From positions 186,001 to 250,000 of the forward strand of contig NZ_FOMZ01000002.1 in the NCBI RefSeq assembly GCF_900112765.1: a stretch of DNA of 64,000 nt. Reading direction: 5' to 3'. The number at the start of each line of letters is the position of its first letter. Positions within the stretch are counted from its first letter, which is position 1. Position numbers and translations under genes: made by a program. The notes beneath the pieces are model-generated. The model searched no databases. It was not told the origin of the DNA and was given only the letters and a program-made list of their open reading frames with translations. Origin of the DNA: Actinopolyspora alba. GTDB lineage: Bacteria; Actinomycetota; Actinomycetes; Mycobacteriales; Pseudonocardiaceae. This document shows, in pieces, positions 7,671 through 58,508 of the stretch.

Positions 7671-7813
7671 ACTCCCACCACTTACGCAGTCGGCACCGCC
7701 GCGGGTTCTCCCGTGCGGCTCTCGCGAGGACGGCACCGACGTTGTGTAGTTACTACCCGATGTCGGGGCACCCGCGGCGAGAGCCGTGCGAGAGGTTCCG
7801 CCACGCAACCACC
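7671..7813 (+). repeat. 3'-UTR hairpin element, copy A (downstream of mnmA)
   Basis: Contains CGGCTCTCGC and GCGAGAGCCG as outer arms, CCGAC/GTCGG as the middle stem and GTAG/CTAC as the apical stem. The conserved tail GGTTCCGCCACGCAACCA ends 24 nt from the mnmA stop, so the mnmA transcript would read the tail first and then the hairpin. The 7528-7837 gap holds nothing else recognisable. Confidence 0.8.
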
Positions 7814-7837
7814 CTGGCCAACCGGGCAGTGAACCGT

Positions 7838-8932
7838 TTATCGAGTAGCGGAGATCTTGGCACTTCCGAGCACGAGATCACCGGCCTCCTCGGGCCGGTA
7901 GAGCACCACCGACTGCCCGGGAGCCACGCCGCGCATCGGCTCGTGGAGCCGCACCCGGACGCCCTCGTCCGTCGTCTCGGCCACGGCACGACAGGTCTCA
8001 CCGTGTGCACGGATCTGGGCCACGCACTCGGTCGGACCGTCGATGGGGCTCTCGGAGGGCCAGATCGGCCGATCCGCGTCGATCTCGGTCACCGAGAGTC
8101 GTTCCGCCGAACCGACCTCGACCGTGCCGGAAACCGGCTCCAGCGAGAGCACGTAACGCGGCCGTCCGTCGGCGGCGGGCTTGTCGATGCCGAGTCCCTT
8201 GCGCTGCCCCACCGTGAAACCGTGCACTCCGGAGTGCTCGGCGAGCACCTCGCCCGAGTCGGCGTCGACCATCTCGCCCGGCCGTTCACCCAGCTTGGAG
8301 TCCAGGAACTTCTTGGTGTCGCCGTCCGGGATGAAGCAGATGTCGTGGCTGTCCGGTTTTCGCGCCACAGCGAGATCGCGCCGCTCCGCCTCCTCGCGTA
8401 CCTCCGACTTCAGCGAGTGGCCCAGCGGGAACATCGCGTGCCGCAGCTGTTGCGGGGTCAGCGAGGCGAGCACGTAGGACTGGTCCTTGTCCTCGTCCCT
8501 GCTGCGGCGCAGTTCCGGAGCTCCCGACTCCTGCGAGAGCCTGGCGTAGTGGCCCGTCGAGACGGCGTCGAAGCCGAGCGCGACGGCCTTCTCCAGCAAC
8601 GCCTCGAACTTGATCTTCTCGTTGCAGGTCATGCACGGGTTGGGGGTACGTCCCGCGGCGTACTCACCCACGAAGGTCTCGATGACCTCCTCGCTGAACC
8701 GCTCGGCGAAGTCCCAGACGTAGAACGGGATCCCCAGAATGTCCGCGGCACGTCGCGCGTCGCGGGAGTCCTCCACGGTGCAACAGCCGCGGGCTCCCGT
8801 TCGCAACGTCCCCGGTTTGGCGGACAACGCCAAGTGCACGCCGGTGACGTCGTGCCCCGCGTCCACAGCTCGGGCGGCAGCCACCGCCGAATCCACACCG
8901 CCGCTCATCGCCGCGAGTACTCGCACCCTCAC
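7838..8932 (-). CDS. mnmA: tRNA-specific 2-thiouridylase MnmA
   Basis: Inserts sulfur at C2 of the wobble uridine in tRNA Lys/Glu/Gln. The PP-loop is SGGVDSA (residues 10-16). The catalytic Cys103 lies in [12 protein letters not shown] and the persulfide Cys199 in DSHDICF. The C-terminal beta-barrel is complete, for 364 residues. Its GTG start overlaps the cysteine desulfurase stop (GTGA), so the sulfur donor and user are translationally coupled. A hairpin repeat lies just beyond the stop. Confidence 0.96.
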
Positions 8933-10152
8933 ACCTCCGTAGGCGCGGTGGCCGATCCCACCGAAGTCTTGCTCAAACCGGAGAGCCCTGCGCCACGGGC
9001 CCGCCGCACGGCCGGTTCCAGCGCGTCCAGGAACGCACGGACGTCCTCACGGGTCGAGTCGTGTCCGAGCGAGAGCCGCAGCGACCCCCGGGCGACCCGC
9101 ACGTCGGCGCCCATCGCCAACAATACGTGGCTGGGTTCGGCGACACCGGCGGTGCACGCGGATCCGGTGGAGCACTCGATGCCGTTGGCGTCGAGCAGCA
9201 TCAACAGGCTGTCCCCTTCACAGCCGGGGAAGGTGAAGTGCGCGTTCCCCGGCAACCGGCCGCCCTCGACGGTACCCGGATCGCCGTTGAGCACCGCGTC
9301 CGGCACGGCCGAACGCACTCCCTCGACGAGTTCGTCGCGCAGGGCGGCGAGCTCCGCCGCGTGGTGCTCCCGGCGGTCGACCGCCTCGCGCAGCGCACTG
9401 GCGAGGGCCAGCACGGCCGGTGTGTCCAGCGTGCCGGAACGGACCTCGCGCTCCTGGCCTCCCCCGTGCAGCAGCGGCGTGCAGGTGACGTCCCTGCCCA
9501 GCACCAGCACCCCGACGCCGTAGGGACCACCGATCTTGTGCCCGGTCATCGTCAGCGCCGACACCCCGGAGGACTCGAAGTCCACGGGCAGCGTCTCCAC
9601 GGCCTGAACGGCGTCGGTGTGCAGCGGTATGCCGTACCGGACGGCCACCTCCGCCAGCTCCGGAATCGGGTTGACCGTGCCGACCTCGTTGTTGGCCCAC
9701 ATCACGGTGGCGAGCGCGACCTCGTCCGGGGCCCGACGAACCACCTCCTCCAGCACTTCGGGAGTCACCCTGCCGTACGAGTCGACCTCCAGCCAGGTGA
9801 CCTCGGCCCCCTCGTGCTCGGCCAGCCACTCCACGGTGTCGAGCACCGCGTGATGCTCCACGGCGGAGGCGAGCACCCGACGACGCCGCGGATCGGCGCC
9901 CCTGCGGCCCCAGAAGATGCCCTTCACCGCGAGGTTGTCGCTCTCGGTGCCACCACCGGTGAACAGCACCTCGGACGGGCGAGCGCCGAGTGCGGCCGCG
10001 ATGTCCTCGCGGGATTCCTCCACGGCACGACGAGCTCGTCTGCCGGAGGTGTGCAGGGACGAGGCGTTGCCCAGCGTGGCGAGCGCTTCGGTCATGACCT
10101 CGATCGCGCCCGCACGCATCGGGGTGGTTGCCGCGTGGTCCAGGTACGTCAT
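8929..10152 (-). CDS. Cysteine desulfurase (NifS/IscS family)
   Basis: A PLP enzyme that takes sulfur from cysteine as an enzyme-bound persulfide. It begins [12 protein letters not shown]. The PLP lysine is K206 in [12 protein letters not shown], and the persulfide Cys333 is in [11 protein letters not shown] on a short loop (NifS/IscS class). Start ATG 10152 overlaps the upstream MFS stop (ATGA), and its own stop overlaps the mnmA start. It is 407 residues long. Position suggests it feeds MnmA for tRNA thiolation; a broader Fe-S role cannot be excluded. Confidence 0.94.
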
Positions 10153-11552
10153 CGCCCGTCCAGGATAATCCCTCGGGAACGCGCCACCAGGCGCGCACCC
10201 AGCGAGCCCGTCAGCATCAGCAGCCCCGCGAGCACGACCACGCCCAGGGTCGGTTCCCGGGTGCTGGCCAGCAGGTTCACCAGCGCCCCTCCCAAGCCGA
10301 CCAGCAGTGCCTGCCCGAGCATGTCGGAGATCTGCAACGCGGCCGAGTTGAACCCTCGTTCGGCCTGGTCCGAGAGCCCCAGCACCCGTACGGCCGTGCT
10401 GGCGACGGATATCCCCATACCGGCACCCGCGATCGACCAGAACACGAAGATCGCCCGGTCCGCTCCCCATTCCGGCGCCAGCAGCGCCACGCCGAGCACG
10501 CCGACGACCACCAGCACGAATCCGGACGCCACCAGGTGCTCCCTGCTGAAACGCCCCTGTCTGCCCTGCCAGAACGAGCCCAACGACCAGCCCAGCGAGG
10601 CCACGGTCAGCGGAATTCCGGCCAACACCGCCGAATAGCCGTGCACGACGGTCAGCACCAGCGGAATGAAGGCCTCCGCGGTGAAGAAGACACCGGCCAG
10701 CAGCCCGCGCGCCAGCACCATGACCGGGATGCCCGGACGGGCCGAGAGCGTCCCGGTGGGCAGCAGCACCCGCACACAGCCCCACAGCGAGGCGATCGCC
10801 GCCACGCCGAGAACCGCCGAGAGCACCGAGGGATGGTCGGCACTCCAGTTGAGCACCACTGTGGCGAGCCCGGCGCCGAGCGCCGCGGGCACCAGTCCCG
10901 GTCTTGCCGTGGGCAACGCCTCGGGGCCGCTCCCGGCGCGCCGGATGGTGGGAGCGAGGAGCACCGCCCCGAGCAGCACGAACGGTGCCAGCCCGAGAAA
11001 GACCCACCGCCAGTGGAGCTGTTCGGTGATCAACCCCGCCAGTGCGGGCCCGAGCAGCGAGGGAAGAACCCAGGCCGCGGACATCGCGCCGAATGCCCTG
11101 GGGTGGTGCCGCTGGGGGTAGACCCTGGCGATCATCACGTACAGCGGCACGGCGACGCTGCCGCCACCCAGTCCCTGCATGGCACGGGCGAGCAGTAGCA
11201 CGGGCATGTTCGGCGCCGACCCGGCGAGCAGGAGTCCCGCCGCGAACAGGGGCAGCGCGAGCAGCAGTGGCAGGGCGGGCCCGTGCCGGTCGGCGAGCCG
11301 GCCCGCGAAGACGGTCCCGACCGCGCTGGCGGCCATGAACAGGGTGAACGCCCAGGAGTACCACCGCTGTCCGTCCAGTTCGGAGGCGATGGTGGGCAGT
11401 GCCGTCGCCACCCCCATCGCCTCGAAGGCGACCAGCGTGACCACCAGCAGCAGGCCGATGGTGAAGTTACGGTACCGCGGTGCCCACAGTGGACTCCCGG
11501 GCTCCGGATCCGTCGCGGCGGTCGTTTCGCGGGGGTCGTTCCGATCGGTCAC
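10149..11552 (-). CDS. MFS transporter, DHA-type exporter
   Basis: A 467-residue membrane protein with about 14 hydrophobic segments, which points to the DHA2 (EmrB-like) group of drug/proton antiporters. MFS motif A appears as GRLADRHGP between segments 2 and 3. GTG 11552 is the most reasonable start ([18 protein letters not shown] precedes the first segment), although no good ribosome site is seen and it overlaps the plsC end by 86 bp; a downstream start is possible. It ends overlapping the cysteine desulfurase start. Linkage to the acyltransferases may mean a lipid or amphiphile substrate, which is inference. Confidence 0.85.
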
Positions 11553-13325: not shown

Positions 13326-13448
13326 GTCCGCAGATGTAGCCGGGTCCGTGCGACCACCGACAGTGGCACCGGACGGACGTAACGAGAACTTCGGGTGAAT
13401 GACGGGTACCCGAGGCCCGCCGGAGCTCGGGAGCGGGGCCGACAGCGT

Positions 13449-13488
13449 TCGGGGGCGGAAGAGACCGGCCGGTCTCTTCCGCCCCCGA
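13449..13488. terminator. 40-nt perfect palindrome between etfA and olsB-like gene
   Basis: The two 20-nt halves are exact reverse complements (left half TCGGGGGCGGAAGAGACCGG). It lies 23 nt after the etfA stop and before the olsB-like promoter region further right. It would form a very stable hairpin closing the etfBA transcript. Confidence 0.8.
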
Positions 13489-13511
13489 GGACGCCGTGGA
13501 ACGAGCGGGCG

Positions 13512-15713: not shown

Positions 15714-16553
15714 ATGAATCGACGCGTCGCCATCGTTACGGACTCCACCGCATCGATCCCCGCCGCTCTGGCCGAGGAGCTGGGCATCACGGTCGTGCAG
15801 CTGGATCTGAGCATCGACGGGGAAAGCGACGACGAGCGACGCGTCCCGCACGACAGACTCGCCGAGGCGATGCGATCGGGACGACCGGTGACCACCGCCG
15901 CTCCGCCGGCCCCCGCGTTCTTCTGGAACTACGCGGACGCCGTCAGCGAGGGTGTCGAGGCGATCGTCTCGGTGCACCTTTCCGGCGGTCTCTCGGCCAC
16001 CTGCGAGGCGGCACGCGCCGCGGCGGCCGAGGTCAGCGTGCCGGTGCACGTGATCGACTCCGGGATGTGCGGGCTGGGATTCGGTCTACCGGTGATCGCT
16101 GCGGCCGAGGCCGCCGCCCGAGGGGACGACGTGCACACGGTGCTGGAGCTGCTGCACCGGCGGCTGAACGGCACCACGGAGATGGTCTACGTCGACACCC
16201 TGGAGTACTTGCGGCGCAGCGGGCGGGTCAGCGGCGGGCAGGCCACCCTCGCGCGGGCACTGTCGATCAAACCACTGCTGGTGATGCGCGACGGCGAACT
16301 GCACGAGCTGACCAAGGGAATCGGGCCGGAACGGGTGCTGCGCAAGGCAGTGGAGCGGGCGGCGCGTACCGCGTCAGGACGGGTCGACATCGCCACGGAG
16401 CACTTCCAGGCTCCCGAACGCGCCAAGTGGGTGCTGGAAAAGCTCAACCGCGGGTTGTCACCGCAGCGGGAACCGTTCCTGGAGGAGACCAGCGCGATCA
16501 TCGGCGCGCACGCCGGCCCCGGAGCAGTGGGAATCACGATCACGCCCGCGTGA
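15714..16553 (+). CDS. DegV family fatty-acid-binding protein
   Basis: A 279-residue DegV protein. VAIVTDSTASIP at the N-terminus and the conserved VHLSGGLSATCEAARAAA and VIDSGMCGLG motifs define the two-domain lipid-binding fold; FVYVDTLEYLRRSGR-type and LSIKPLL segments follow. In Firmicutes, such FakB proteins present fatty acids to the kinase FakA. No FakA (DAK-domain) gene lies beside it; the DhaKL proteins at 51-53 kb are a separate set. The ATG at 15714 has a weak ribosome site. Confidence 0.9.
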   Translation: MNRRVAIVTDSTASIPAALAEELGITVVQLDLSIDGESDDERRVPHDRLAEAMRSGRPVTTAAPPAPAFFWNYADAVSEGVEAIVSVHLSGGLSATCEAARAAAAEVSVPVHVIDSGMCGLGFGLPVIAAAEAAARGDDVHTVLELLHRRLNGTTEMVYVDTLEYLRRSGRVSGGQATLARALSIKPLLVMRDGELHELTKGIGPERVLRKAVERAARTASGRVDIATEHFQAPERAKWVLEKLNRGLSPQREPFLEETSAIIGAHAGPGAVGITITPA

Positions 16554-16582: not shown

Positions 16583-16750
16583 GGTGGTTGCGTGGCGGAA
16601 CCTCCGGAGGCGCCTCGCCGCGGGTGCCCCGACATCGGGTAGCGACCTACACAACGTCGGGGCCTTCCTCGCGAGGCACTCCCCGGAGAACCCGCGGTCG
16701 GTCCTGCTGCGAGGGTGGTCGGGGCTCGGCCTGCGGAAGTGGTGGGAGTG
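16583..16750 (-). repeat. 3'-UTR hairpin element, copy B (downstream of degV)
   Basis: Reads TGGTTGCGTGGCGGAACC starting about 30 nt beyond the degV stop, then the hairpin with GCCCCGAC/GTCGGGGC as the middle stem and GTAG/CTAC as the apical stem. It is in opposite orientation to copy C in the same gap. Confidence 0.8.
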
Positions 16751-16774: not shown

Positions 16775-16800
16775 CCGGCGATTTCTCGAGAAATCGCCGG
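16775..16800. repeat. Short palindromic element, perfect 26-nt copy
   Basis: Core CGATTTCTCGAGAAATCG flanked by CCGG and CCGG: every base pairs. The best of several related palindromes in intergenic DNA of this window. Confidence 0.8.
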
Positions 16801-16827
16801 AGCTCGGGGCCACACCACCCCACTGCG

Positions 16828-16853
16828 CCGTCGATTTCGCGAGAAATTGACGG
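16828..16853. repeat. Short palindromic element, second copy
   Basis: CCGTCGATTTCGC facing GAGAAATTGACGG: the same core with two mismatches between arms, 27 nt beyond the perfect copy. Confidence 0.7.
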
Positions 16854-16884
16854 AACGGTGAAGGGGTGTGACCACGGGGCGTAA

Positions 16885-16898
16885 ATTTCTCGAGAAAT
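16885..16898. repeat. Short palindromic element, third copy
   Basis: ATTTCTCGAGAAAT, a perfect 14-nt core. Its flanks GGCGTAA and CGCCGCGCC pair only partly. Confidence 0.7.
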
Positions 16899-16930
16899 CG
16901 CCGCGCCCTTGGTGCTCCGAAAGCCGAACC

Positions 16931-17061
16931 CCGACCACCAGCGCAGCCTGCGCCGCCGCGGGTTCTCCGGTGCGGCTCTCGCGAGGAAGTCCCGACGTGG
17001 CGTAGGTGGCTACTCGATATCGGGCCTCCCGGAGCGCGAGCCGTGCCAGAGGTTCCGCCAC
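16931..17061 (+). repeat. 3'-UTR hairpin element, copy C (downstream of hrpA)
   Basis: The tail GAGGTTCCGCCAC ends about 36 nt from the hrpA stop. Middle stem CCCGA/TCGGG and apical stem GTAG/CTAC are conserved. The whole 16554-17096 gap is filled by two hairpin copies back to back with three short palindromes between them. Confidence 0.75.
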
Positions 17062-17096
17062 CCGCGCCCTACGGCAAGCGGGCGACCACAGTGCGG

Positions 17097-20000
17097 TCAG
17101 GGTTGGAGCTTGTCCATGGCCCGGTGTATCCGCTTCTCCGAGACCGAGTGCGGCGTCCCCAGCTCCTGCGCGAAGTAACTCACCCGCAGTTCTTCGATCA
17201 TCCAACCGATCGACCAGAGCCGCTCGCCCACCGGTTTGCCCTCCCCCACGGAGTCGAGCATCTCCTGGTAGCGCTGCTCCACGCCACGTACCCGTTCCAT
17301 CAGATCTCGATCCCGACCTGGATGCTGCGCGACCTTCCGCAACCGGTAGGAGACGGCTTCGAGGTAGCGCCGCAGATCGGCCAACCGCCACCACCCCGTC
17401 TCGGTGACGAAACCGGGGTAGATCAGGTTGGACAGCTGGGTGCGGATGTCCTCGGCGGCGTCGGCGGAAAGCGAGCGTGTGCCGTCCAGTTCGGCCTCGA
17501 CCCGCTGTTGGGTGGTAAGCACCTGCTCCACGGTGGACAGCACCCGCTCGGAGGTCTCGTTCAGCCCCTCACGCACCTGCCGCACCACGGTGGCGAAGGC
17601 CTCCTGGTCCGCGGGCACGCCCCCGGCTCGATCGATGAGCGCGTCCGCGGCGCAGGCGATGCAGTCCTCGAAGAGGGTCTCGGGATCCCCGTGCGGACTA
17701 CGGCCGAACACCAGCTTCGCCGAGTTCGTCAGCTGCCGCCGCAGGAACTTCACCGGCGAGGGCAGGTTCAGCAGCACCAATCGGCGGGCACCACGACGTT
17801 GCTGGTCGCGTTGTTCGGCGACCGTGTCGAAAGCGCGAATGCCGACGCTGTCACCCTCGTCGACCAGCGCCGGGTAGGCCTTGACCACCTGGCCGTTGCG
17901 CTGCCGCTCGAAAGTTCCGGGAACCTTGCCGAAGTCCCACTCGCGCAACCCGTGCCGTTCGATGCTTTCCGCCGCCGCCGATATCTCGGCCCGCAGCCGG
18001 GGGCGCAGTCGCTCGGAGAGCTCCTCCAGGTCCTTGCCCTCCGCGAGGATGCGTTCCTCACCGCTGTTCTCGTCGCCCTCCACCACGCGGAAGGTCATCC
18101 GCAGATGGTCGGGAATCCGTTGCGGATCCCAGGCGTCGAGCGGAACGTTGACCCCGGTCATGCGCCGCAGTTCGGCGGAGAGCGCTTCGAGCAGCGGACC
18201 CTCGTACGGTCGCAGCCGCGCGAGCAGCGCCCTGACGTGGTCGGGAACCGGCACGAACTCACGTCGCCACTGCTTGGGCAGTGCCTTGAGCAGCGCCGTG
18301 ATCAGCTCCTCGCGGAGCCCTGGGATCTGCCAGTCGAAACCGGCGGGGCTGAGCTGGTTGAGCACGGCCACCGGCACGTGCACGGTCACCCCGTCTGCGT
18401 CACTGCCGGGCTCGAACTGGTAGCTCAGCCGCAACCGGTGCCTGCCCTGCTGCCAGAAGTCCGGGTAGTCGGTGTCGGTCACGCTCGCGGAGGTCTCGTT
18501 GAACAGCAACGACCTCGGGAAGGTGAGCAGGTCGGGCTGCCGGCGCCGGACCTTCTTCCACCAGGTGTCGAAGTGGCGGGCGGAAACCACCTCGGCACCG
18601 ACCCGCTGGTCGTAGAAGTCGTAGAGCGCGTCGTCGTCCACGACGATGTCGCGGCGCCGGGCGCGCTGTTCCAGCTCCTCGACCTCCGCGAGCAGCTTGC
18701 GGTTGGTGTGGAAGAACTCGTGGCGGGTGTCCCAGTCGCCCTCGACCAGGGCGTGCCGGATGAACAGCTCGCGGCAGAGTTCGGGTTCGACGCGGCCGTA
18801 GTTGACCTTGCGGCCCGCCACGAGCGGAACGCCGTAGAGCGTCACTCGTTCATAGGCCATCACCGCGCCCTTGTCCTTCTCCCAGTGCGGCTCGCTGTAG
18901 TGCCGCTTGACCAGGTGCCCCGCCAGTCGCTCGATCCAGGCGGGTTCCACCTTCGCGACGGTGCGCGCCCAGAGCCGGGAGGTCTCCACCAGTTCGGCCG
19001 CCATGACCCACTGCGGCTGCTTCTTGAACAGCGCCGAGCCGGGGAAGATCGCGAACTTCGCACCCCGCGCACCCAGGTACTCGGTGCCGGAGCGGCGGTT
19101 GGAACCGGACTTGCGCTCGGTGTCCTTCAACCCGATGTGCGAGAGCAGCCCGGCCAGCAGCGACTGGTGCACCCGGTCCTCGTCGGCGGGCTCGTCGTTG
19201 ATCGAGATGTCGAGCGAGTTGACCATCTGCCGCAGCTGGCTGTAGAGGTCCTGCCACTCCCGCACCCGGATGTAGTTCAGGTACTCGTTGCGGCACATTC
19301 GTCGGAACTGGTTGCCGGAGAGCTCCTTGCGCTGGTCACGCAGGTACTGCCAGAGATTGAGGTAGGCGAGGAAGTCGGACTGCTTGTTGTGGAACCTGGC
19401 GTGCTGCTGATCGGCTGCCTGCTGGTGCTCCGTGGGACGTTCCCTGGGATCCTGGATCGACAGTCCGGCCGCCACGACCATCGTCTCGTGCACGCACCCG
19501 TTCACCTCGGCCTCGACGATCATCCTGGCCAGCCTCGGGTCGATCGGCAGCTGCGCCAGCTTCGAGCCGACCTTGGTCAGCCGCTGGTTGTCCTGCTTGC
19601 CCCGCTTGGTGGACTGCTCCAGCGCGCCCAGCTCGTGCAGCAGGTTCACCCCGTCGGTGATCTGCCGCCGGTCGGGGGGTTCCACGAACGGGAACGAGGC
19701 CACCTCGCCCAGCCCCAGCGAGGTCATCCGCAGGATCACCGAGGCGAGGTTCGTGCGCAGGATCTCCGGATCGGTGAACTCCTGCCGGGCCAGGAAGTCC
19801 TCCTCGGAGTACAGCCGGACGCAGATCCCCTCGGACTCGCGACCGCAGCGCCCCTTGCGCTGGTTGGCCGAAGCCTGCGAGACGGGCTCGACGGGCAGCC
19901 GCTGCACCCTGGTCCGGAAGCTGTAGCGGGATATCCGCGCGGTGCCGGGGTCGATGACGTACTTGATGCCCGGCACGGTCAACGAGGTCTCGGCGACGTT

Positions 20001-41057: not shown

Positions 41058-41086
41058 GCGCGGCGATTTCGCGAGAAATCGACGCG
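41058..41086. repeat. Short palindromic element
   Basis: Core CGATTTCGCGAGAAATCG (41064-41081) with CGCGG and CGCGG flanks; near-perfect symmetry, the centre GCGA being asymmetric. Confidence 0.7.
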
Positions 41087-41100: not shown

Positions 41101-41170
41101 GAACCCCTACCACTCTCACAGCCGGTACCACCGCGAGAGGCTCCGCAACCACACCGCCACGCAACCCGCG
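41101..41170 (+). repeat. Degenerate 3'-UTR hairpin element, copy F
   Basis: GAACCCCTACCACTCTC and CGAGAGGCTCCGCAACCA resemble the two ends of the family; the hairpin body is deleted. Its tail ends 17 nt from the stop of the minus-strand gene at 41187, the same geometry as the full copies. Confidence 0.45.
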
Positions 41171-44589: not shown

Positions 44590-46410
44590 ATGGGTCTTGC
44601 CGACGATCGTGATCTGCTACCGCTGGGATCGGGCTTCGACATCGTTCGTAAGGGTGGCTACGACAGAGCCCAGGTCGACGAGCACCTGGAACGTATCGAC
44701 GCGGACCTGCGCCTGCTCACCTCGGATCGTGACGCGGCGGTCTCGCAGTCAGGGGAACTGTCCAAACAACTGGAATCGGCGCGCTCCGAGATCGAGAGCC
44801 TACGTGGACAGGTCGAGCGGCTGGGGAAACCGCCGACCACGATGGAAGGACTCAGCGAGCGCCTGCAACGAATGCTGCGACTCGCCCAGGAGGAAGCGGG
44901 CGAGATTCGTTCCAAAGCGGAGAGTGACGCCACCGAGCGGCGGGAGCGCGCCGAGCGGGAGGCCACCGATCTCCGCAACCGCTACGAGCAGTTGATCTCC
45001 GAGCTCGACTCACGACGCGCCGAGATGGAGTCCGAGCACCGCTCGGTTCTGGAGACCGCGAGGGCCGAGGCCGAGCGCATCACGACCGAGGCCGAGGAGA
45101 ACCGCAAGCGGGCCGACGAGGAGTCCGAGGCACGTCGCGCCCAGGTCGAGGAGGACTTCGAGATCGCCATGGCGGCTCGCCGCAGCGAGTCGATGCGAAC
45201 CCTCGCCGACCAGGAGGCCAACAGCAAGGCCGAGGCCGAGCGTCGTGTCAGCGAGGCCGCCGAGGAGGCCGACCGCAGGCTGCGGGAGGCCAGCGGGGAG
45301 GCTCACCGCCTGGTCCAGGAAGCCACCGAGGAGGCCGAGCGGCTCACCCGGGAGAGCACCGAGGCCGCGGAGCAACGCGAGCGGGAGAGCAAGCAGGCTG
45401 CCGAGCGACGCGAACGAGAGAGCATCGAGGCAGCCGAGAAACGGGAACGCGAAAGTGTCGAGGCAGCCGAGAAGCGGGAACGCGAGAGCAGGGAAGCGGC
45501 CGAGCGACGCGAACGCGAGAGCATCGAGGCCGCCGAGAAGCGCGAGCGCGACAGCAAGGCCGAAGCCGAACGCCTGGTCACCGAAGCGCAGGAACAGGCG
45601 AGGCTGACAACGCAACGTGCCACCGAGGAGGCCACCCGCCTCCTGGAGGAGGCGACCCTCGAGAGCGACCGACTGCGCCGCAGGGCCCGTGCGGACGCCG
45701 AGGAACGGATAACGGCCACCACGCGGGAGTGCGAACGGCGGTTGAGCACGGTTGACGAGCAGGTCGGCACCCTGACCGAGCTGCGTGACAGCGTGGCCGG
45801 GAAGCTGCGGGACGCGGCCGAACTGCTCGGGCAGACCACTCCGCTGCTGGACAGGCTCACCAACGACGACGAGGCGGAACAGCAGCTGCGGGAATCCGCC
45901 GCCACCGCACGCGAGACGGCCCGGTCGGAAGCGATCGCCGCGCTGGACGAGCCGGAACGGGACAGCGGGGAGCCCTCCTCGTCCGAGATTGCCGGCACGG
46001 AAACGACCGAAACCGAGACCAGCTCGGCGACCGTGGGCGCGGAGAACGGCAACACCGCGACGATACGGTTCGCACTGGCCGACATCGAGAGTTCGGGTGT
46101 CCCGCTCGCCGATCCGTCCGGCAACGGTCACGCCGGACCGGAAACCGCCGATTCCACCACCGACGGGAAAGCGGGCTCCAACGGGACGGAGCCGAGCGGG
46201 AAGGCATCACTGGAGGCGGCTACCGAAAAGATCGATCGTTCGAAGCTCCCGCAGCGGGGAACGGACGCGAACGGGGGCGTGGACGCCCACGACCCACCGA
46301 CCAGGCGGATCCCACTTCCCGACCTCGGGAACGGCTCGGCACCGACGGGGGACGACGACTCGGGAACCGAGCCGGAGCACGGCTCCGATCAGCCCGTTCA
46401 GCAGCACTGA
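44590..46410 (+). CDS. DivIVA-like coiled-coil protein with hendecad repeats
   Basis: 606 residues from ATG 44590 (GGAGGTAG upstream). The N-terminus FDIVRKGGYDRAQVDEHLER resembles the DivIVA/Wag31 membrane-targeting segment. Residues 35-430 are an almost unbroken, highly charged coiled coil. At 255-320 six consecutive 11-residue units of the form ESxxAAExRER occur. The last about 150 residues are acidic and disordered (repeated Thr/Glu/Asp/Gly). Related proteins (FilP, Scy, DivIVA) organise polar growth in actinomycetes. A specific role is inferred. Confidence 0.82.
   Translation: MGLADDRDLLPLGSGFDIVRKGGYDRAQVDEHLERIDADLRLLTSDRDAAVSQSGELSKQLESARSEIESLRGQVERLGKPPTTMEGLSERLQRMLRLAQEEAGEIRSKAESDATERRERAEREATDLRNRYEQLISELDSRRAEMESEHRSVLETARAEAERITTEAEENRKRADEESEARRAQVEEDFEIAMAARRSESMRTLADQEANSKAEAERRVSEAAEEADRRLREASGEAHRLVQEATEEAERLTRESTEAAEQRERESKQAAERRERESIEAAEKRERESVEAAEKRERESREAAERRERESIEAAEKRERDSKAEAERLVTEAQEQARLTTQRATEEATRLLEEATLESDRLRRRARADAEERITATTRECERRLSTVDEQVGTLTELRDSVAGKLRDAAELLGQTTPLLDRLTNDDEAEQQLRESAATARETARSEAIAALDEPERDSGEPSSSEIAGTETTETETSSATVGAENGNTATIRFALADIESSGVPLADPSGNGHAGPETADSTTDGKAGSNGTEPSGKASLEAATEKIDRSKLPQRGTDANGGVDAHDPPTRRIPLPDLGNGSAPTGDDDSGTEPEHGSDQPVQQH
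45352..45549 (+). repeat. Six tandem 33-bp units inside the coiled-coil gene
   Basis: 198 bp encoding six 11-residue repeats (ESTEAAEQRER, ESKQAAERRER, ESIEAAEKRER, ESVEAAEKRER, ESREAAERRER, ESIEAAEKRER). The units differ at synonymous sites, so they are not a very recent expansion. Confidence 0.9.
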
Positions 46411-46417
46411 CCGGACA

Positions 46418-49510: not shown

Positions 49511-49646
49511 AACTCCCACCACCCTCGCAGCAGGACCGACCGCGGGTTCTCCCGTGCGGCTCTCGCGAGGACGCCGGAGACGTTGTGTAGTTGCCCTACC
49601 CGGTGTCTCCGGACCCGCAGCGAGAGCCGTGCGCGAGGTTCCGCCA
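49511..49646 (+). repeat. 3'-UTR hairpin element, copy D (downstream of DUF3558-like gene)
   Basis: Outer arms CGGCTCTCGC/GCGAGAGCCG are retained, but the middle stem is CCGGAGAC/GTCTCCGG rather than CCGAC/GTCGG: both sides changed together. Apical GTAG/CTAC kept. The tail ends 42 nt from the stop at 49689. The 49297-49688 gap contains only this and the palindrome. Confidence 0.8.
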
Positions 49647-49688
49647 AGTGAGGGCCCGAGACAACCACGGTGCCGACTTCGTGCCGGG

Positions 49689-50744
49689 TCACCGTTTCGG
49701 GAGTTCGGGCCAGACGTGTTCGGCCAGCCCACGAGCGTACTCGCACGCCCGCACCCCGTCGGCCTCCGGCAGAAAGACCACCAGCATCGCGACCTCGACC
49801 TCACCGGCAGTGGGACCACCGAACGGGATGTGGCCGGTCTCCGCTGCGCACAGCCCCACCTTCGGGTCGTCACCGATGATGTCGACCACGGTACGTCTGC
49901 CCGCGGTGCGCTCCACGACAGCCGTGGCGTCCCGCCTGCGCGGTGGTTCTCCAGCGGTGAGCGTCAGTTCGACGCTGGGCACCCGGATGCTCTCACCGCC
50001 CCAACGACACCGGTGCCCGGCGGGACTCGCCCGCCGCTCGGCTCGCCGCAGCCCCGCGACCCGGTGCACGACCTCCGTCGGCAGGAGCCCGCACGAATCC
50101 GTCCTGGCCAGCGAGTTCGGCGGAAAGTCCCGGTGCTCGACCCCACCGGCCAGCACGGCCTCGGCGGCGGCCTCCGCTCCCGAGCCGGCCACGGTGCACA
50201 GCCCCACCTCCGGATCGCCGGACAGCAGGTCGACGTCGACACTCATGGCGATTCCGTCCGAGAACAGGATCCGCCTGCCGCAGTGCTCGGGAACCGGCTG
50301 CTCGTCGACCACCCGGAGGCCACCGACGTGCCGAACGGGATTGTCGGAGGTCAACTCAGCGGCGTTCACGTCCTGCAGCCGTCCCACGGCCAGTTGCAAC
50401 AGTCCGCCGGACTCCGGACGCAGGTGGAACAGGCAGTAGTCCAACGAGACGGTGTCCGCACGATTCACTTTTCCGAACCGTTCGAGCCGCCGGGCCCGCA
50501 GCAGCCCGCACGGATCGAGCGTGGCCAGGTCTCCCAGCACCGCGCTGGAGACCCCCCGCTCTCCCCTACGCGTGGAATCCCCGGACGGAAACACCGCACA
50601 ACCGGCGAGCAGTCCGAACAACAGTCCGAGCACCACGAACGATCGGATGCCTCGGTAACGCGGGCGCGTGGCCCCGCGTCCTCCACCGGGGAACGTGCGG
50701 AACGGTTCGCGCACCGGAACTGTTCGAGATGTCGTCGGGCTCAC
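49689..50744 (-). CDS. Lipoprotein with duplicated DUF3558-like domain
   Basis: 351 residues from ATG 50744, which overlaps the dhaM stop (ATGA). A hydrophobic segment SFVVLGLLFGLLAGC ends in a lipobox (Cys about 49) after a basic N-terminus. Two domains begin LATLDPCGLLRA and ARTDSCGLLP, the LDPC-type motif of DUF3558 proteins of mycobacteria and relatives, each with paired cysteines (DYCLF, EHCGR, GLCTV; HRCRW, GLCAA). Probably cell-surface. The coupling to dhaM is surprising and its meaning unknown. Confidence 0.8.
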   Translation of the reverse strand: MSPTTSRTVPVREPFRTFPGGGRGATRPRYRGIRSFVVLGLLFGLLAGCAVFPSGDSTRRGERGVSSAVLGDLATLDPCGLLRARRLERFGKVNRADTVSLDYCLFHLRPESGGLLQLAVGRLQDVNAAELTSDNPVRHVGGLRVVDEQPVPEHCGRRILFSDGIAMSVDVDLLSGDPEVGLCTVAGSGAEAAAEAVLAGGVEHRDFPPNSLARTDSCGLLPTEVVHRVAGLRRAERRASPAGHRCRWGGESIRVPSVELTLTAGEPPRRRDATAVVERTAGRRTVVDIIGDDPKVGLCAAETGHIPFGGPTAGEVEVAMLVVFLPEADGVRACEYARGLAEHVWPELPKR

Positions 50745-53235: not shown

Positions 53236-53576
53236 TGGCGACCTCCTGACAGACCGTGGCGCTTTAGGCCCGGCTCCACCGCCGGATTCCCGGAACCGAT
53301 ACCTACCGGGTCGGGAGGACGGGCACACGCCGGACGAATCCACCTGGAGCCCGGAGCCGGCCGACCGGGTCGTGAACGGTTCCGCGCACCCAGGATCCTT
53401 CGGGACACCACAGTCCGGCAACAGTCGAGTACCGGCCAGTCGAAAAGTCGTTCCACCGGGACGGTCCCGTCGAAGTGGTGCCGCCCGCTCGCCAGTGGCC
53501 GGCCACGTGCCGGGACCCAGTGACACACCCTCGAACGGGTGAGGGACCGCGCGGGCGCCGTGTCAACGCGGAACGC
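53236..53576. other. Intergenic region upstream of dhaK
   Basis: 341 bases between dhaK (leftward) and the end of the aldehyde dehydrogenase gene. It should hold the dhaKLM promoter. A weak 5-bp stem, CCCTC/GAGGG, lies near 53530, close to the dehydrogenase stop. No gene or repeat found. Confidence 0.5.
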
Positions 53577-55103
53577 TCACCGGCGTCCGCGAATCAGCTT
53601 CATCAGCCGCACCAGATACCGGACGGTCCGCGCGGAACGGCCGAAGGTCATCGGATCGATCGGCATGCGGAACCGGGTCCGGGTGACGGACTGTGCCCTG
53701 GCGAACTCACGCAGCCCGTCGGCACCGTGAATCCGGCCGAAACCGGAGTCCCCCACCCCGCCGAACGGCAGGGCAGGCACGGCGGCGAACGAGATCACCG
53801 AGTTCACCGCGACCATCCCGGTGCGCATGCGGCGTGCCAGCTCCGTCCCCCTGGAACGTGAGAAAACCGTTCCGCCGAGGCCGTAGTTGCCGTCGTTGGC
53901 ACGCTCGACGCCTTCATCCGCGGTGCTCACCCGGTTGATCACGATCGTGGGACCGAAGGTCTCCTCCGTGACCGCGGCCGAGTCCTCCGGCACGTCGGTG
54001 AGCACCACCGGATCGACGTAGGGCGGGCGGACCGAGCTCTCGCCGCCCAGTTCGGCCTTCCCGCCGGAACGGACGGCATCGGCGATGTGCTCGCGGATCA
54101 CCTCCACCTGCGAACCCATCGTGATGGGACCGAGATCGGCGGTGGGCTGTCCGCCCGGGCGCAGCTTCTCCGCGCGGTCGAGCACCAGCTGGACGAACCG
54201 CTCGGCCACGGAGTCGACCACGTAGACGCGCTCCACCCCGATACAGGTCTGTCCCGCGTTGGAGACGGCTCCCCACACCGCGGCCTCGGCGGCAGCACGC
54301 AGATCGGCGTCCGAATCCACGATCAGGGCGTCCTTGCCGCCGCACTCCACCAGCACCGGGGTCAACGACTCCGAGCAGGTGGCCATCACCCGCTTGCCGG
54401 TTTCGGTCGAACCGGTGAAGGCGATTTTGTCCGTCTCGGCACGACACAGCGCGGCACCGGTATCGCCGAATCCGGTAACCACCTGCAGTACGGGCTGTTC
54501 GGGAACCACCTCGGCGAAGGTCCGCCGCAGCCACTCCCCCACGCCGGGGGTCAGCTCGCTGGGCTTGAACACCACCGAGTTACCCGCGGCGAGCGCGTAG
54601 GCGATGGATCCCATCGGGGTGAAGGCGGGGTAGTTCCACGGTCCGATGACTCCCACGACGCCGAACGCGCGGTACTCCACGGTGGCGGCCTGGTTGGCCA
54701 TGAGGACCCCGGCGGAAACCCCGCGCCTGCGGAGCACCTTGGACGCGTTGGCGGCCGCCCAGTGCAGGTGGTCCACGACGAGCACCAGTTCGAGTCTGGC
54801 GTCGTCCATCGGCTTACCGGTCTCCGCGGAGATCAGTTCCGCGGCCTCGTCCAACCGCGAGACCAGCAGCTCCCGCCAGGCATCCAGCCGGAGTTTCCGC
54901 TGTTGGAACCCCAGTTCCTCCCACCAGTGCTGGGCGTCGCGAGCGGTGCGGACGGCATCGGCGACGTGCTCCCGATCATGAATCGGGTGGGTGCCCACCA
55001 CTTCACCGGTACGCGGATCGATGGATTCGAAGATGGAACCGGGCGAGGTGTCGGCCGTCTTCTCGACAGGTACTTCGACACCGCCACGGGCGGTCTGGGT
55101 CAT
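53577..55103 (-). CDS. NAD(P)-dependent aldehyde dehydrogenase (succinic-semialdehyde type)
   Basis: 508 residues from ATG 55103 (GGGGAGG upstream). Asn157 in IGPWNYPAF, cofactor loop FTGSTETGKRVM, Glu253 in LVECGGKDA and nucleophile Cys287 in SNAGQTCIGVERV are all present. The C-terminal basic tail (RYLVRLMKLIRGRR) is typical of the actinobacterial GabD2-like group, but substrate cannot be assigned. Stands between dhaKLM and the SSS transporter. Confidence 0.92.
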   Translation of the reverse strand: MTQTARGGVEVPVEKTADTSPGSIFESIDPRTGEVVGTHPIHDREHVADAVRTARDAQHWWEELGFQQRKLRLDAWRELLVSRLDEAAELISAETGKPMDDARLELVLVVDHLHWAAANASKVLRRRGVSAGVLMANQAATVEYRAFGVVGVIGPWNYPAFTPMGSIAYALAAGNSVVFKPSELTPGVGEWLRRTFAEVVPEQPVLQVVTGFGDTGAALCRAETDKIAFTGSTETGKRVMATCSESLTPVLVECGGKDALIVDSDADLRAAAEAAVWGAVSNAGQTCIGVERVYVVDSVAERFVQLVLDRAEKLRPGGQPTADLGPITMGSQVEVIREHIADAVRSGGKAELGGESSVRPPYVDPVVLTDVPEDSAAVTEETFGPTIVINRVSTADEGVERANDGNYGLGGTVFSRSRGTELARRMRTGMVAVNSVISFAAVPALPFGGVGDSGFGRIHGADGLREFARAQSVTRTRFRMPIDPMTFGRSARTVRYLVRLMKLIRGRR

Positions 55104-55295
55104 GCTCGGCCTCCCCACCGGTCGGTGTTCGCCGGTCGCGACGTCGCTGATGTGACGCGGCCTACGCGATTCGGCCGAACGGCGACGCACGCGACCTCCG
55201 CGCGGGCACGTGCCCGCGCGGAGGTTCAACGAATCATCGGCTCAATGGTTGCGCCGAACCCGCGACCGGGGAAACGGGGAGTAGACGAGGTCCCG

Positions 55296-55571
55296 CTAGG
55301 AGGACTCACTCTCCGAGTCGGTGGGAACGACGATCGGACGCAACCAACCCCAGAGGATGAAGGAACCGGCGAAGATCAGCATGCCGATACCGCTCCAGAG
55401 GTTGATGTTGACTCCCGCCGCCTGATCGATCTCCCGCGAGCTGGTGCCGAACAACCCCATCAGGGTGCAGACCAGACCGTAGAGCACGAACAGCGCGGCG
55501 ATCACCTGGCGAACGTCGAACACTCCGGCACGCTGCCCGCTGCGGGAGCCGTTCTCGTTGGATGCGCTCAT
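55296..55571 (-). CDS. Small membrane protein following the SSS transporter
   Basis: 91 residues from ATG 55571 (GGGAGG 6 nt upstream). Two hydrophobic segments (about 23-43, VIAALFVLYGLVCTLMGLFG; and 58-78, LWSGIGMLIFAGSFILWGWL) flank IDQAAGVNINLW. It begins 27 bp after the symporter stop, so it is co-transcribed. A partner is often found next to such symporters in actinomycetes. Role unknown. Confidence 0.85.
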   Translation of the reverse strand: MSASNENGSRSGQRAGVFDVRQVIAALFVLYGLVCTLMGLFGTSSREIDQAAGVNINLWSGIGMLIFAGSFILWGWLRPIVVPTDSESESS

Positions 55572-55598
55572 ACTTGCCTCCCGATATGGCGAACGTGG

Positions 55599-57278
55599 TT
55601 AGCCGAAGACGATGTTGAGGATGATGACTATCACCAACACGATCCCGGCCAGCAGTCCTGGCCTGCGGTACCAGCCCGAGTCCTCGCCGGTCGTCGAGGC
55701 GGTGCGCTCCTCCTTCGGCGTCAGACCGTAAACCAGTCCGACGAGCTCGGCGGCGGGCTTGGGCCTGGTGGCCAGGCTGACCACGACGCTGACGAGGATG
55801 TCGACCACGAAGGCCGCGCCTGCTCCGACGAAGCTCGCTCCCTGTCCCAGCAGGTCCAGCACACCGGTCTCGGCCATCAGGAAGACGCTCAACGAGGCAG
55901 CGGTACCGAGCACGAGACCGGACCAACCGGCGGCCGGGGTCATGCGCTTCCAGAACATACCGAGGATGAACGTGGCGAACAACGGCGCGTTGAACAGCGA
56001 GAACAGCTGCTGCAGGTAGTCCATCAGGTTCGAGTAGCCCGAAGCGATGAACGCGGTACCGATCGCGATGACCGTGGAGCCCACCGTGACCCAGCGGCCC
56101 ATGTTCAGGTAGTAGCTGTCCGGGCGGTTCCGGATGACGTAGGCCTGCCAGATGTCGTAGGTGAACACGGTGTTGAACGAACTCAGGTTCGCGGCCATGC
56201 CCGCCATGAACGATGCCAGCAATCCGGCGAGCGCGATACCCAGGATGCCGTTGGGCAGCAGATCACGCATCAGCAGCAGGAGGGCGTCGTTGTACTCGAC
56301 GTTGCCCTCACCCGTCTGCTTGAACACCATCATTTCCTGGACGGAAGCACCGGCGATCATACCGGGGATGATCACCAGGAACGGGATGAGCATCTTCGGG
56401 AAGGCGCCGATGATCGGGGTGCGCTGCGCGGCGGACATGCTCTTGGACGCCATCGCACGCTGGACCTCGACGAAGTTGGTGGTCCAGTAGCCGAAGGCCA
56501 GCACGAAGCCGAGCCCGAAGACGATTCCCAGCACCGACAGGAAGTTGCTGCCGAACCCGGTGAGCTCGTTACCCGGCCAGGCCGAGAGCTCGTTGGCGCC
56601 GTACTGGGTACTGACCTTGTCGACGAGTCCGGACCAACCGCCGACCTTGATCATGCCGACGATGGTCAGCGGGAGAAGCGCGGCGACGATGACGAAGAAC
56701 TGCAGGACCTCGTTGTAGATCGCCGCGGAGAGGCCACCGAGCCCGGTGTAGCTGAGCACGATCAACGCGGCGATGATCACGGAGACCCACAGCGGCCAGC
56801 CGAGCAGGACGTTGACGATGCTGGCGAGCAGGAACAGGTTCACACCCGCGATGAGCAGCTGCGCCACCGCGAAGCTGATGGCGTTGACCAGATGCGCGGC
56901 CTTGCCGAAACGGCGCAGCATGAATTCCGGAACGCTGCGCACCTTCGAGCCGTAGTAGAACGGCATCATCACGACGCCGAGGAACAGCATCGCCGGGATG
57001 GCGCCGACCCAGAAGTAGTGCATCGTCGGCATGCCGTACTGGGCGCCGTTGGCGGACATACCGATGATCTCGACGGCACCGAGGTTGGCCGCTATGAAGG
57101 CCAGGCCCGTCACCCACGCGGGCAGTGACCGCCCGGAGAGGAAGAAGTCAAGACTGCTCGACACCGAACGACGCGCCAGGAGCCCGATCCCGAGCACGAA
57201 CGCGAAGTAGAGCGCGAGCAGCAGATAGTCGACCGGCCCGGCGTCCAGTCGAAGCTGCTCCTGCGCTAGCACATGCAC
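55599..57278 (-). CDS. Sodium:solute symporter (SSS/SLC5 family)
   Basis: 559 residues from GTG 57278 (GGAGGTGGGG upstream). About 14 hydrophobic segments with the LeuT-fold SSS motifs: SGRSLPAWVTGLAFIAANLG, RRFGKAAHLVNAISF, SYTGLGGLSAAIYNEVLQFF (Na+ site region) and LASFMAGMAANLSSFNTVFT. It is closest in pattern to the sugar/inositol (SGLT-like) branch, but the substrate is unproven. With the 91-aa gene it forms a leftward unit. Confidence 0.92.
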   Translation of the reverse strand: MHVLAQEQLRLDAGPVDYLLLALYFAFVLGIGLLARRSVSSSLDFFLSGRSLPAWVTGLAFIAANLGAVEIIGMSANGAQYGMPTMHYFWVGAIPAMLFLGVVMMPFYYGSKVRSVPEFMLRRFGKAAHLVNAISFAVAQLLIAGVNLFLLASIVNVLLGWPLWVSVIIAALIVLSYTGLGGLSAAIYNEVLQFFVIVAALLPLTIVGMIKVGGWSGLVDKVSTQYGANELSAWPGNELTGFGSNFLSVLGIVFGLGFVLAFGYWTTNFVEVQRAMASKSMSAAQRTPIIGAFPKMLIPFLVIIPGMIAGASVQEMMVFKQTGEGNVEYNDALLLLMRDLLPNGILGIALAGLLASFMAGMAANLSSFNTVFTYDIWQAYVIRNRPDSYYLNMGRWVTVGSTVIAIGTAFIASGYSNLMDYLQQLFSLFNAPLFATFILGMFWKRMTPAAGWSGLVLGTAASLSVFLMAETGVLDLLGQGASFVGAGAAFVVDILVSVVVSLATRPKPAAELVGLVYGLTPKEERTASTTGEDSGWYRRPGLLAGIVLVIVIILNIVFG

Positions 57279-57837
57279 GCTACCCCACCTCCAAATTAAA
57301 CAAGTTCAAACGGTAATCACCATTCACCAAAGCAGGTGAACAATACCCCACAGTGCGCCGAGTCACAGAGGGGCCGATATCAATTCGTTGACTACGGACG
57401 CTAAATCGATCAGGCACGCTCAGCCAAGCGGCCGAACGGAAGATCACCCTAGCCGATCAGGAGCAGTCCGTACTGCGACATCCATCCCAGCGCGGACATG
57501 CCGCTCGAGTCCGTGGCCGCACGGCGGCGCGGCACCGGAACGAAAACGGGAACCAACACGACCGCGATCGAGGATCGAACATCGCACAGCACGACAAGAA
57601 AGATCAACAAATTGTCACGAAGAGTAACCAAAAAAATGAATCACACTCGAACATTCGGAGCGGTCTCGCCAGCGCGACATCCAGCCGAACACGCACAGTC
57701 GAGAATCCGCACCACACAACCGCTACACGGGCCACTACCAGGGAGAGATATTAACCCGAAAAGTGCAGTGAATTCCGAACATCTACCACGGGAAAGAGAT
57801 CACACATAGCATCATATCGACCGCAGGAGGTGAATCG
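57279..57837. other. AT-richer intergenic region
   Basis: 559 bases between the divergent symporter and the small-gene cluster. Base composition is distinctly less GC-rich than its neighbours, particularly 57270-57370 and 57590-57650, as expected for promoters or regulator sites. An open frame at 57498-57809 has poor codon use. I see no tRNA or clear hairpin. Confidence 0.5.
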
Positions 57838-57948
57838 ATGAGCATCGCCGCCGTACTGGCGCTACTGGCTGTGACACTGGTGGTGGGCCCCTGGTTGCTA
57901 CTTCGCTGGCTCTCCGCCACACCACGGCGCGGCACGCCGCATGGTTGA
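57838..57948 (+). CDS. Single-span membrane miniprotein, 36 aa
   Basis: ATG 57838 has a perfect AGGAGGTGA 4 nt upstream. The peptide starts SIAAVLALLAVTLVVGPWLL, then LRWLSATPRRG, one transmembrane helix with a basic tail. Its size and layout recall the MetS-type small subunits of sodium-coupled transporters; the symporter gene is divergent next door. It could be a symporter accessory. Function unproven. Confidence 0.65.
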   Translation: MSIAAVLALLAVTLVVGPWLLLRWLSATPRRGTPHG

Positions 57949-58008
57949 ACCGGCTCGGTCGCGGAGCGAGAAGTCCGAACCCGAGTCACCGAGCGAGGAG
58001 GCACTTCC

Positions 58009-58164
58009 GTGAACGAACGGACCCCGCAGTCGGCCGCGTCGTGGACACGACGCCGAGGGGTGCCCGGCGAACGCCGGTTGCCGACCGGAGCAGCGACGGA
58101 ACCGACCGCTGCGCTCACCCCGGTGACTCGAACACCGAAACGTGGCAAGGAGACCGAGCAGTGA
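58009..58164 (+). CDS. Small basic protein, 51 aa
   Basis: GTG 58009 follows GAGGAGG by 8 nt. The peptide is rich in Arg, Thr and Pro (NERTPQSAASWTRRRGVPGE). Its stop overlaps the next start (GTGA). The strong ribosome site and the coupling are the main support. No family known. Confidence 0.5.
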   Translation: MNERTPQSAASWTRRRGVPGERRLPTGAATEPTAALTPVTRTPKRGKETEQ

Positions 58165-58418
58165 CGGCTCCCGCGATCCCCGAAACACTTACCCCCGTCG
58201 AGGCGGATCCGCCGCGACGGGCACCACGTCCGTGCCGGACGCATCGCTACGTAACCGCGTTCCGGGGGGAACTGCCACGACAGCACTCCCTGGGAGCCAC
58301 CGCCCCGGCGGCGTACCGACCGCCGGAGTTCCCCGTACACGGCTGGAGCACCCCACGGGTGAGCTCGCCGGACATGGAGCTGATGGAGCGGATTCTGAAC
58401 GGACTCCGTCAACTCTGA
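58161..58418 (+). CDS. Small hypothetical protein, 85 aa
   Basis: GTG 58161 overlaps the previous stop. The sequence (TAPAIPETLTPVEADPPRRA, then HRYVTAFRGELPRQHSLGA) ends in an amphipathic helix (MELMERILNGLRQL). A hairpin-element tail begins 28 nt beyond its stop, with the same spacing as at proven genes, which supports it as a real gene. Function unknown. Confidence 0.6.
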   Translation: MTAPAIPETLTPVEADPPRRAPRPCRTHRYVTAFRGELPRQHSLGATAPAAYRPPEFPVHGWSTPRVSSPDMELMERILNGLRQL

Positions 58419-58445
58419 GAGCGTTCCCCGAACATACCGCGCAGC

Positions 58446-58508
58446 TGGTTGCGTGGCGGAACCTCTCGCACCGCTCTCGCCGCGGGCACCCCGACATCGA
58501 GCAGGCAC
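58446..58508 (-). repeat. Truncated 3'-UTR hairpin element, copy E
   Basis: TGGTTGCGTGGCGGAACC, then the outer and middle right arms of the hairpin (GGCACCCCGACATCGAGCAG). The distal half is missing: it ends at the nucS stop. Confidence 0.7.

What the first reader, a model, noticed from the sequence alone, without database searches (positions are those of the whole stretch)
7671..58508. Family of intergenic hairpin elements anchored beyond stop codons, with covarying stems
Copies at 7671-7813, 16583-16750, 16931-17061, 49511-49646, truncated 58446-58508 and degenerate 41101-41170. In the sense of the preceding gene each reads stop, about 17-43 nt, TGGTTGCGTGGCGGAACC, then a hairpin with outer arms CGGCTCTCGC/GCGAGAGCCG, a middle stem and an apical GTAG/CTAC. 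The middle stem differs (GCCCCGAC/GTCGGGGC in B, CCGGAGAC/GTCTCCGG in D) but pairs in each full copy. All six copies point their tail at the end of a gene (mnmA, degV, hrpA, DUF3558-like, 85-aa ORF, 41187 gene). This looks like a selected RNA or DNA structure, such as a 3'-UTR stabiliser, terminator or REP-like unit.
Basis: seen in the sequence. Interest (0 to 1): 0.85.

Follow-up and report, generated by a model that had tools for sequence, protein, structure and literature searches.

The report
Hairpin transposon relics at gene ends
The repeats belong to a large family of short, probably mobile DNA elements in Actinopolyspora and related bacteria that sit directly after stop codons and carry a long hairpin whose two arms change together while the pairing is kept.

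Summary
The genome, an Actinopolyspora, has over 100 copies; 83 of 390 genomes of its GTDB family, in 15 of 46 genera, have some. Of 94 own copies examined, 80 lie beyond a gene end, 69 of these 28-47 nt (median 38) past the stop. Stems covary, also at a single-copy site after gatB in three species. But in variable stems G.U is no commoner than A.C and the antisense strand folds better, so the pairing looks kept in DNA or on both strands, not as a sense RNA. Best reading: MITE-like mobile elements. In genome G390 all eight 232-234-bp units looked at with 17-bp inverted ends hold the hairpin; 14 of 18 end pairs have identical TNA flanks; one pair encloses an IS5-family transposase. Another genus has other ends and CTAG repeats. 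One window site has filled and empty alleles, with a dimer directly after the stop. No inverted ends are recognisable on the window copies and repeat tests there were negative, so the IS5 origin is inference from relatives. The REP/RAYT reading fails. Function, stop preference, orientation and replication polarity stay unexplained.

The parts
7691..7806 (-). full hairpin core downstream of mnmA (stop at 7838-7840); stop-to-hairpin tail 7807-7837
   Evidence: orthologous site filled in G003, G004, G005, G009, shortened in G008, empty in G007
16590..16705 (+). full hairpin core downstream of degV (stop at 16551-16553)
   Evidence: same site in G003, G004, G005, G009 with arm changes
16948..17063 (-). 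full hairpin core downstream of hrpA (stop at 17097-17099), convergent with the degV copy
   Evidence: full in G009, short form in G003, absent in G004 and G005
49532..49649 (-). full hairpin core downstream of a DUF3558 gene (stop at 49689-49691)
   Evidence: full in G004, G005; short form in G009; decayed in G003
58446..58508 (+). truncated copy: tail, 5' arm and part of the apex only
41101..41170 (-). copy without hairpin; tail and 3' part remain
   Evidence: G009 has the full hairpin at this place
5262..5368 (+). divergent or decayed copy, first model base 34 nt past the stop of the 3411-5228 gene
16775..16907 (.). three ATTTC-type palindromes between the degV and hrpA copies; this palindrome is a usual 3' companion in this genome
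   Evidence: within 260 nt 3' of 73 of 94 own copies (slightly relaxed pattern), against 3 (strict pattern) in 156,596 nt further away

Best explanation
A family of miniature, non-coding, transposon-like repeats (MITE-like), spread in the past by IS5-family transposases. Anatomy: left end at a stop codon; a ~36-nt tail; a ~115-nt hairpin with conserved base (TGGCGGAACC ... GAGAACCCGCGG), conserved inner motif (GCUSCGGGAUC / GCUGUCCUCGC in most) and freely changing but paired arms; then a second short palindrome. Proposed mechanism: insertion at short targets that can themselves be stop codons (TNA: TGA, TAA; or CTAR: CTAG, CTAA) duplicates the stop, so the host gene stays intact and the hairpin becomes its new 3' flank. 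SHOWN: copy number, stop anchoring, covariation, a filled and empty site, and, in relatives, inverted ends around the hairpin, short flanking repeats and an IS5-family IS with matching ends. INFERRED: that the window's old copies arose the same way; that the transposase moves the short elements; that the hairpin is kept by pairing at DNA level or on both strands; that insertions past stops survive because they are harmless or serve as 3'-end barriers.
For: Copies. Stop anchoring: 80 of 94 own copies have a gene end on the tail side and 69 of those 80 lie 28-47 nt from the stop; spacing centred on about 38 also among hosts found in G021 and G022. Mobility: the two Actinopolyspora clades fill mostly different sites in the same 64 kb; at window ~13.4 kb G002 has a tandem dimer right after TGA, with a terminator-like hairpin beyond that resembles the one following the stop in the own genome (by eye), while own, G009, G005, G004, G003, G008 and G007 are empty. 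Ends: GAGCCTGTCTTTGAACT (up to 2 mismatches) occurs 262 times in G390 against 1 for the reversed control; 8 of 8 pairs 232-234 bp apart hold a full hairpin match; 14 of 18 pairs have identical 3-bp TGA or TCA flanks; a 962-bp pair encloses an IS5-family transposase, NF033580 8e-59. In G021 four of eight copies with that kind of left end have the stop's CTGA again at the far end (L329, L330, L335, L342; by eye). In genus g16, CTAG/CTAA-containing repeats: L399 ACTAGCG, L404 GGACCTA, L406 CTAGCC by longest common string, L411 and L412 by eye, of 8 G184/G188 loci; L345 10 bp. Covariation: 113 double-change cells against 28.5 shuffled; 288 against 88 over three genera.
Against: No inverted ends could be recognised on the window's own copies. 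A permutation test for direct repeats around the stop was negative in own (1402 of 2000 permutations reach the observed value), G021 (1318) and G022 (1161), and not significant in 13 low-copy loci (191); a test for inverted ends was not significant in four groups (208, 1187, 1309 and 850 of 2000; weak, since all copies of a family share ends). Only one IS with matching ends was seen, in one genome. In G390 stop anchoring was not tested, several units abut the GTGGCGGAACCTCA motif of another element, and in the hairpin's sense the left flank is TCA in 6 of 8 units and TGA in 2. TNA or CTAR targets alone do not explain why nearly all own copies sit at stops, nor why the tail faces the stop. Compensatory change at the single-copy gatB site needs selection or self-templated correction. 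Replication polarity is unexplained.
Confidence: 0.65

Rival explanations
1. A 3'-UTR RNA structure (terminator, exonuclease barrier or insulator), kept by selection on the transcript of the preceding gene and spread secondarily.
For: Fixed stop distance and gene-sense orientation; orthologous site after gatB in three genomes with one copy each, several paired changes while the genes are 91-93% identical; strong folding; copies concentrated towards the origin in three of four genomes, where I expect core genes.
Against: In variable stems G.U is not commoner than A.C (29:29, 10:14, 8:6; positions with over 25% non-Watson-Crick cells excluded; without that exclusion G.U leads 77:29, 110:14, 58:6, owing to a few constant positions). 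Antisense RNA folds better in 58 of 58 own copies folded (of 94), 19 of 20 G021 and 21 of 25 G022 copies. A second hairpin often follows. Five of 22 low-copy loci lie antisense to both neighbours.
Confidence: 0.2
2. REP/REPIN-type element mobilised as single-stranded DNA by a RAYT (Y1 HUH) transposase on the lagging-strand template.
For: Conserved ends with a paired but variable interior, as described for REPINs (PMC3116915, passages); GTAG/CTAC at the apex; orientation co-directional with replication at 23 of 24 convergent sites looked at in G021 and G022; [quoted passage not shown]
Against: Y1_Tnp is not found in element-bearing genomes G002, G008, G022, G023 and G035; GTAG is at the apex, not 5' of the hairpin; inverted ends and short flanking repeats in relatives; polarity weak in Actinopolyspora (13 co, 6 head-on at convergent G009 sites).
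Confidence: 0.08
3. The covariation is a mutational by-product: hairpin-templated repair or gene conversion between copies makes arms agree without any function. (May hold together with the best explanation.)
For: Nearly all changes are Watson-Crick to Watson-Crick, with few one-sided ones; G.U equals A.C; middle-stem types are swapped between species at one site.
Against: Conversion between copies cannot act at the gatB site in genomes where one copy was found; base and inner motif stay conserved while arms change, so something discriminates.
Confidence: 0.25

Closest known systems
Bacterial MITEs with IS5-family ends (TNA or YTAR target repeats: group rules recalled, not looked up)
   Same: Non-coding, high copy, short; inverted ends and short flanking repeats in relatives; an IS5-family IS with the same ends in the same genome
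   Different: Interior is a conserved, covarying hairpin module found with different end types; in Actinopolyspora, G021 and G022 it sits at stop codons; ends unrecognisable in the window copies
REP / BIME / REPIN elements with RAYT
   Same: Extragenic, high copy, paired variable interior with compensatory changes (PMC3116915, passages)
   Different: No RAYT needed; no GTAG/GTGG tag 5' of the hairpin; fixed distance to stops; inverted ends and TNA/CTAG repeats in relatives
Integron attC sites (recalled)
   Same: Imperfect hairpin directly after a stop codon, recognised by shape more than sequence
   Different: No cassette arrays seen; the attC end motifs as recalled are not in the sequence; hosts are dispersed chromosomal genes. 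Not tested with a model

Membership tests
MITE (IS5-family ends) | terminal inverted repeats | tested here: inconclusive
   met in G390: 17-mer 262 times, control 1; 8 of 8 pairs 232-234 bp apart hold the hairpin. Not recognisable on the window copies; permutation test not significant
MITE (IS5-family ends) | short target-site repeats | tested here: inconclusive
   G390: 14 of 18 identical TNA; G184/G188: CTAG/CTAA repeats in 5 of 8, two of them by eye; permutation tests negative in own, G021, G022
MITE (IS5-family ends) | autonomous IS with the same ends | tested here: met
   one 962-bp IS, IS5-family transposase, in G390; not looked for elsewhere
MITE (IS5-family ends) | filled and empty orthologous sites | tested here: met
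   window ~13.4 kb, G002 filled, seven Actinopolyspora genomes empty, G001 a remnant, G006 not mapped
REP/REPIN with RAYT | RAYT (Y1_Tnp) gene in the genome | tested here: not met
   element-bearing G002, G008, G022, G023, G035 have no match
REP/REPIN with RAYT | GTAG/GTGG tetranucleotide 5' of the hairpin | tested here: not met
   GTAG lies beside the apical loop
known RNA family (Rfam 15) | match at gathering score | tested here: not met
   only a TPP riboswitch and a tRNA in the window
intrinsic terminator | hairpin followed by a U run | tested here: not met
   no T run directly after the hairpin in the 30 aligned copies (by eye); termination itself not testable here
sense-RNA structural element | G.U tolerated more than A.C in variable stems | tested here: not met
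   29:29, 10:14, 8:6 after leaving out constant non-Watson-Crick positions; raw 77:29, 110:14, 58:6

The most novel reading that the evidence does not exclude
The hairpin core is a portable 3'-end module that has been passed between unrelated IS5-type end pairs (GCCTGTCTTTGAACT with TGA; GAGTGTTTGA with CTAG; two end types by eye within G021) and is kept in place by selection on a structure that works on both strands, so that transposons which target stop codons have supplied a whole group of bacteria with ready-made gene boundaries.
Probability: 0.3. Interest if true: 0.8.

Novelty: new variant of a known kind. Interest (0 to 1): 0.62.

Why it matters
If right, here is a transposon family whose usual landing site is the stop codon itself, which spares the gene and rewrites its 3' flank, in some genomes at over a hundred places. 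It is also a caution: strong covariation in repeats need not mean a functional RNA, and the count of G.U against A.C is a simple discriminating test. If the module does act at gene ends, these actinomycetes carry a natural library of 3'-end variants. In the listings of my paper searches (two of them returned nothing) and in passages of three papers I saw no description of it; the library is open-access papers only.

Tried and rejected
REP/RAYT: rejected on absence of Y1_Tnp matches in five element-bearing genomes; one of ten Y1_Tnp loci (L226, G001) has a copy nearby, not tested against expectation. Horizontal carriers: no blastn match in plasmids for two copies or in phages for one; two viral contigs match the core pattern, not studied. 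Direct and inverted end-repeat permutation tests: not significant. Long outer helix pairing tail with 3' flank: seen in single folds of G021 copies; in consensus folds only five outer pairs in G021 and none in G022 or own. Shared hosts between genera: 2 of 19 G022 hosts and 1 of 17 G021 hosts match one of 69 own hosts, no formal test. tRNA yardstick for G.U against A.C (21:0 in 16 tRNAs) is biased, since the program appears to draw only pairs it accepts. One measure against: on A3 the number of further pair types is not above shuffles (36 against 35.2; 208 of 500). Replication polarity as a general property: strong in G021 and G022, but 36 of 49 (G003) and 69 of 101 (G009) listed matches are near the gene background of about 63%. 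Selection in those counts: lists are cut by score (25 of 38 G021, 94 of 111 G022, 49 of 131 G003, 101 of 129 G009 matches); of the 25 G021 places I fetched 20, and the only head-on place listed was not among them; the G022 and G009 regions were chosen where matches cluster.
Full report
WHAT IS THERE. The organism is an Actinopolyspora: MnmA is 99% identical to that of A. righensis; G005 contig C7 and G001 contig C5 have the lengths of A. righensis NZ_FPAT01000003.1 and A. biskrensis NZ_JACBYW010000005.1. 'Family' below is the unnamed GTDB family f1 of the search tool, which I recall as Pseudonocardiaceae; NCBI files Actinopolyspora in Actinopolysporaceae. G021 has 8,212,805 bases, the length I recall for Saccharopolyspora erythraea NRRL 2338; that name is recalled.

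COPY NUMBER AND SPREAD. A covariance model from 33 copies (A1, R1) finds 122 matches in the genome at E<=1e-3 (150 of 8116 candidates scored). Among 61 genomes searched, own included, 16 have matches: all 10 Actinopolyspora (G007 only three) and one genome in each of six further genera of the family; 0 of 24 genomes from other families. A second model from 65 copies (20 own, L142, 19 G021, 25 G022; R2) finds matches in 83 of 390 family genomes and 15 of 46 genera. Copy number runs from one to over 100 (G022 111; G397 150 of 150 scored).

POSITION. 94 distinct own copies (102 matches, duplicates dropped by me; own simple gene caller) have a gene end on the tail side in 80 cases and a gene start in 14. 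Of the 80, 69 begin 28-47 nt past the stop, median 38; nine lie 134-234 nt away, mostly with another hairpin family in between; two lie over 600 nt away. Stops of the 69 are TGA 42, TAG 20, TAA 7. Stop distances among hosts found centre on about 38 in G021 and G022 too, with more scatter. In G390 the left inverted repeat begins 35 nt before the hairpin model, the same architecture.

STRUCTURE. On 94 distinct rows 97.1% of cells pair, with 113 double-change cells against 28.5 in shuffles. Across three genera plus L142 96.2% pair, 288 against 88, though the number of pair types is not above shuffles; arm sequences differ widely between genera while base and inner motif stay. At gatB three genomes (G289, G290, G292), each with one match, carry it at the same site with several paired substitutions although the genes are 91-93% identical (GatB by NCBIfam for one); a fourth one-copy genome of that genus, G291, has it at another gene. 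This speaks against conversion from other copies. In variable stems G.U and A.C are equally frequent (29:29, 10:14, 8:6) once positions with over 25% non-Watson-Crick cells are left out (raw 77:29, 110:14, 58:6). The antisense RNA is more stable in 58 of 58 own copies folded, 19 of 20 and 21 of 25, as expected since the conserved sense mismatches AAC/AAC and CA/CA become wobble-capable on the other strand. I read this as pairing kept at DNA level or on both strands.

MOBILITY. Within the own clade sites are shared, with arm swaps, short forms apparently from slippage between CGCACGG repeats, and losses. The clade G001/G002/G006 fills mostly other sites in the same 64 kb (some of its matches are weak, 21-42 bits). 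At ~13.4 kb G002 carries two tandem copies immediately after the TGA, then sequence that resembles by eye the own genome's post-stop stretch with its G+C-rich terminator-like hairpin; own, G009, G005, G004, G003, G008 and G007 are empty. In G390 (genus g26) the 17-mer GAGCCTGTCTTTGAACT occurs 262 times with up to two mismatches (reversed control 1). Of 18 inverted pairs in the 20 stretches fetched, 14 have identical TGA or TCA flanks; all eight pairs of 232-234 bp hold a full hairpin match; some shorter pairs lack it; one pair of 962 bp encloses a 290-residue IS5-family transposase frame and lies beside a hairpin element. Several G390 units abut the GTGGCGGAACCTCA motif of another element, and stop anchoring was not tested there. 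In G021 four of eight copies with similar left ends show the stop's CTGA again at the far end, by eye. In genus g16 the ends differ (GAGTGTTTGA...GAAACAC) with CTAG/CTAA-containing repeats. Thus the core travels with different ends. The general permutation tests for flanking repeats were negative in own, G021 and G022, as might be expected of old copies but no support.

UNEXPLAINED. (a) Preference for stops beyond what TNA/CTAR would give, and tail-first orientation. (b) At convergent sites, where gene bias cancels, the tail faces the gene co-directional with replication in 10 of 10 (G021) and 13 of 14 (G022) sites, but only 13 against 6 in G009; for the selection of these sites see Tried and rejected. 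(c) Copies thin out away from the origin: 46/35/17/3 by quarter of the replichore in G009, 18/18/12/1 in G003, 38/28/18/10 in G022, less clearly 7/13/2/3 in G021, of the matches listed.

VERDICT. A MITE-like family with a conserved covarying hairpin, lying at stop codons; new variant of a known kind. That the window's copies are IS5-type in origin is inference from relatives.

Noticed in passing
window 16781-16898, 41066-41079, and 73 of 94 own copies: Palindrome ATTTCKCGAGAAAT lies within 260 nt 3' of most own copies (73 of 94) and rarely further away (3 in 156,596 nt): probably a second component of the composite element.
   Followed up: partly
L046, L050, L097, L111 and others, 60-200 nt before the hairpin: A second hairpin family (CCGGCACGTGAGTCGGCG...GTAGCGACCTAC...CCGACTCACGCACC) with a similar tail and apex sits between stop and element near 9 of 94 copies.
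   Followed up: partly
G003, G009, G021, G022: Listed matches cluster towards the replication origin in three of these four; in G021 and G022 they point along replication even at convergent sites.
   Followed up: partly
L420, L423, L425, L431-L433 (G397): Downstream of several copies stand arrays of short units such as GGCACGGCTTCGCCGCAAGGCAGGC.
   Followed up: no
L385, L386: Two IMG/VR contigs hold the core pattern.
   Followed up: no
window 1403-1501 (-): TPP riboswitch, 65 bits.
   Followed up: no
window 45283-45579: Direct repeats at 33-bp spacing, seven overlapping 99-nt matches, within a long open frame.
   Followed up: no
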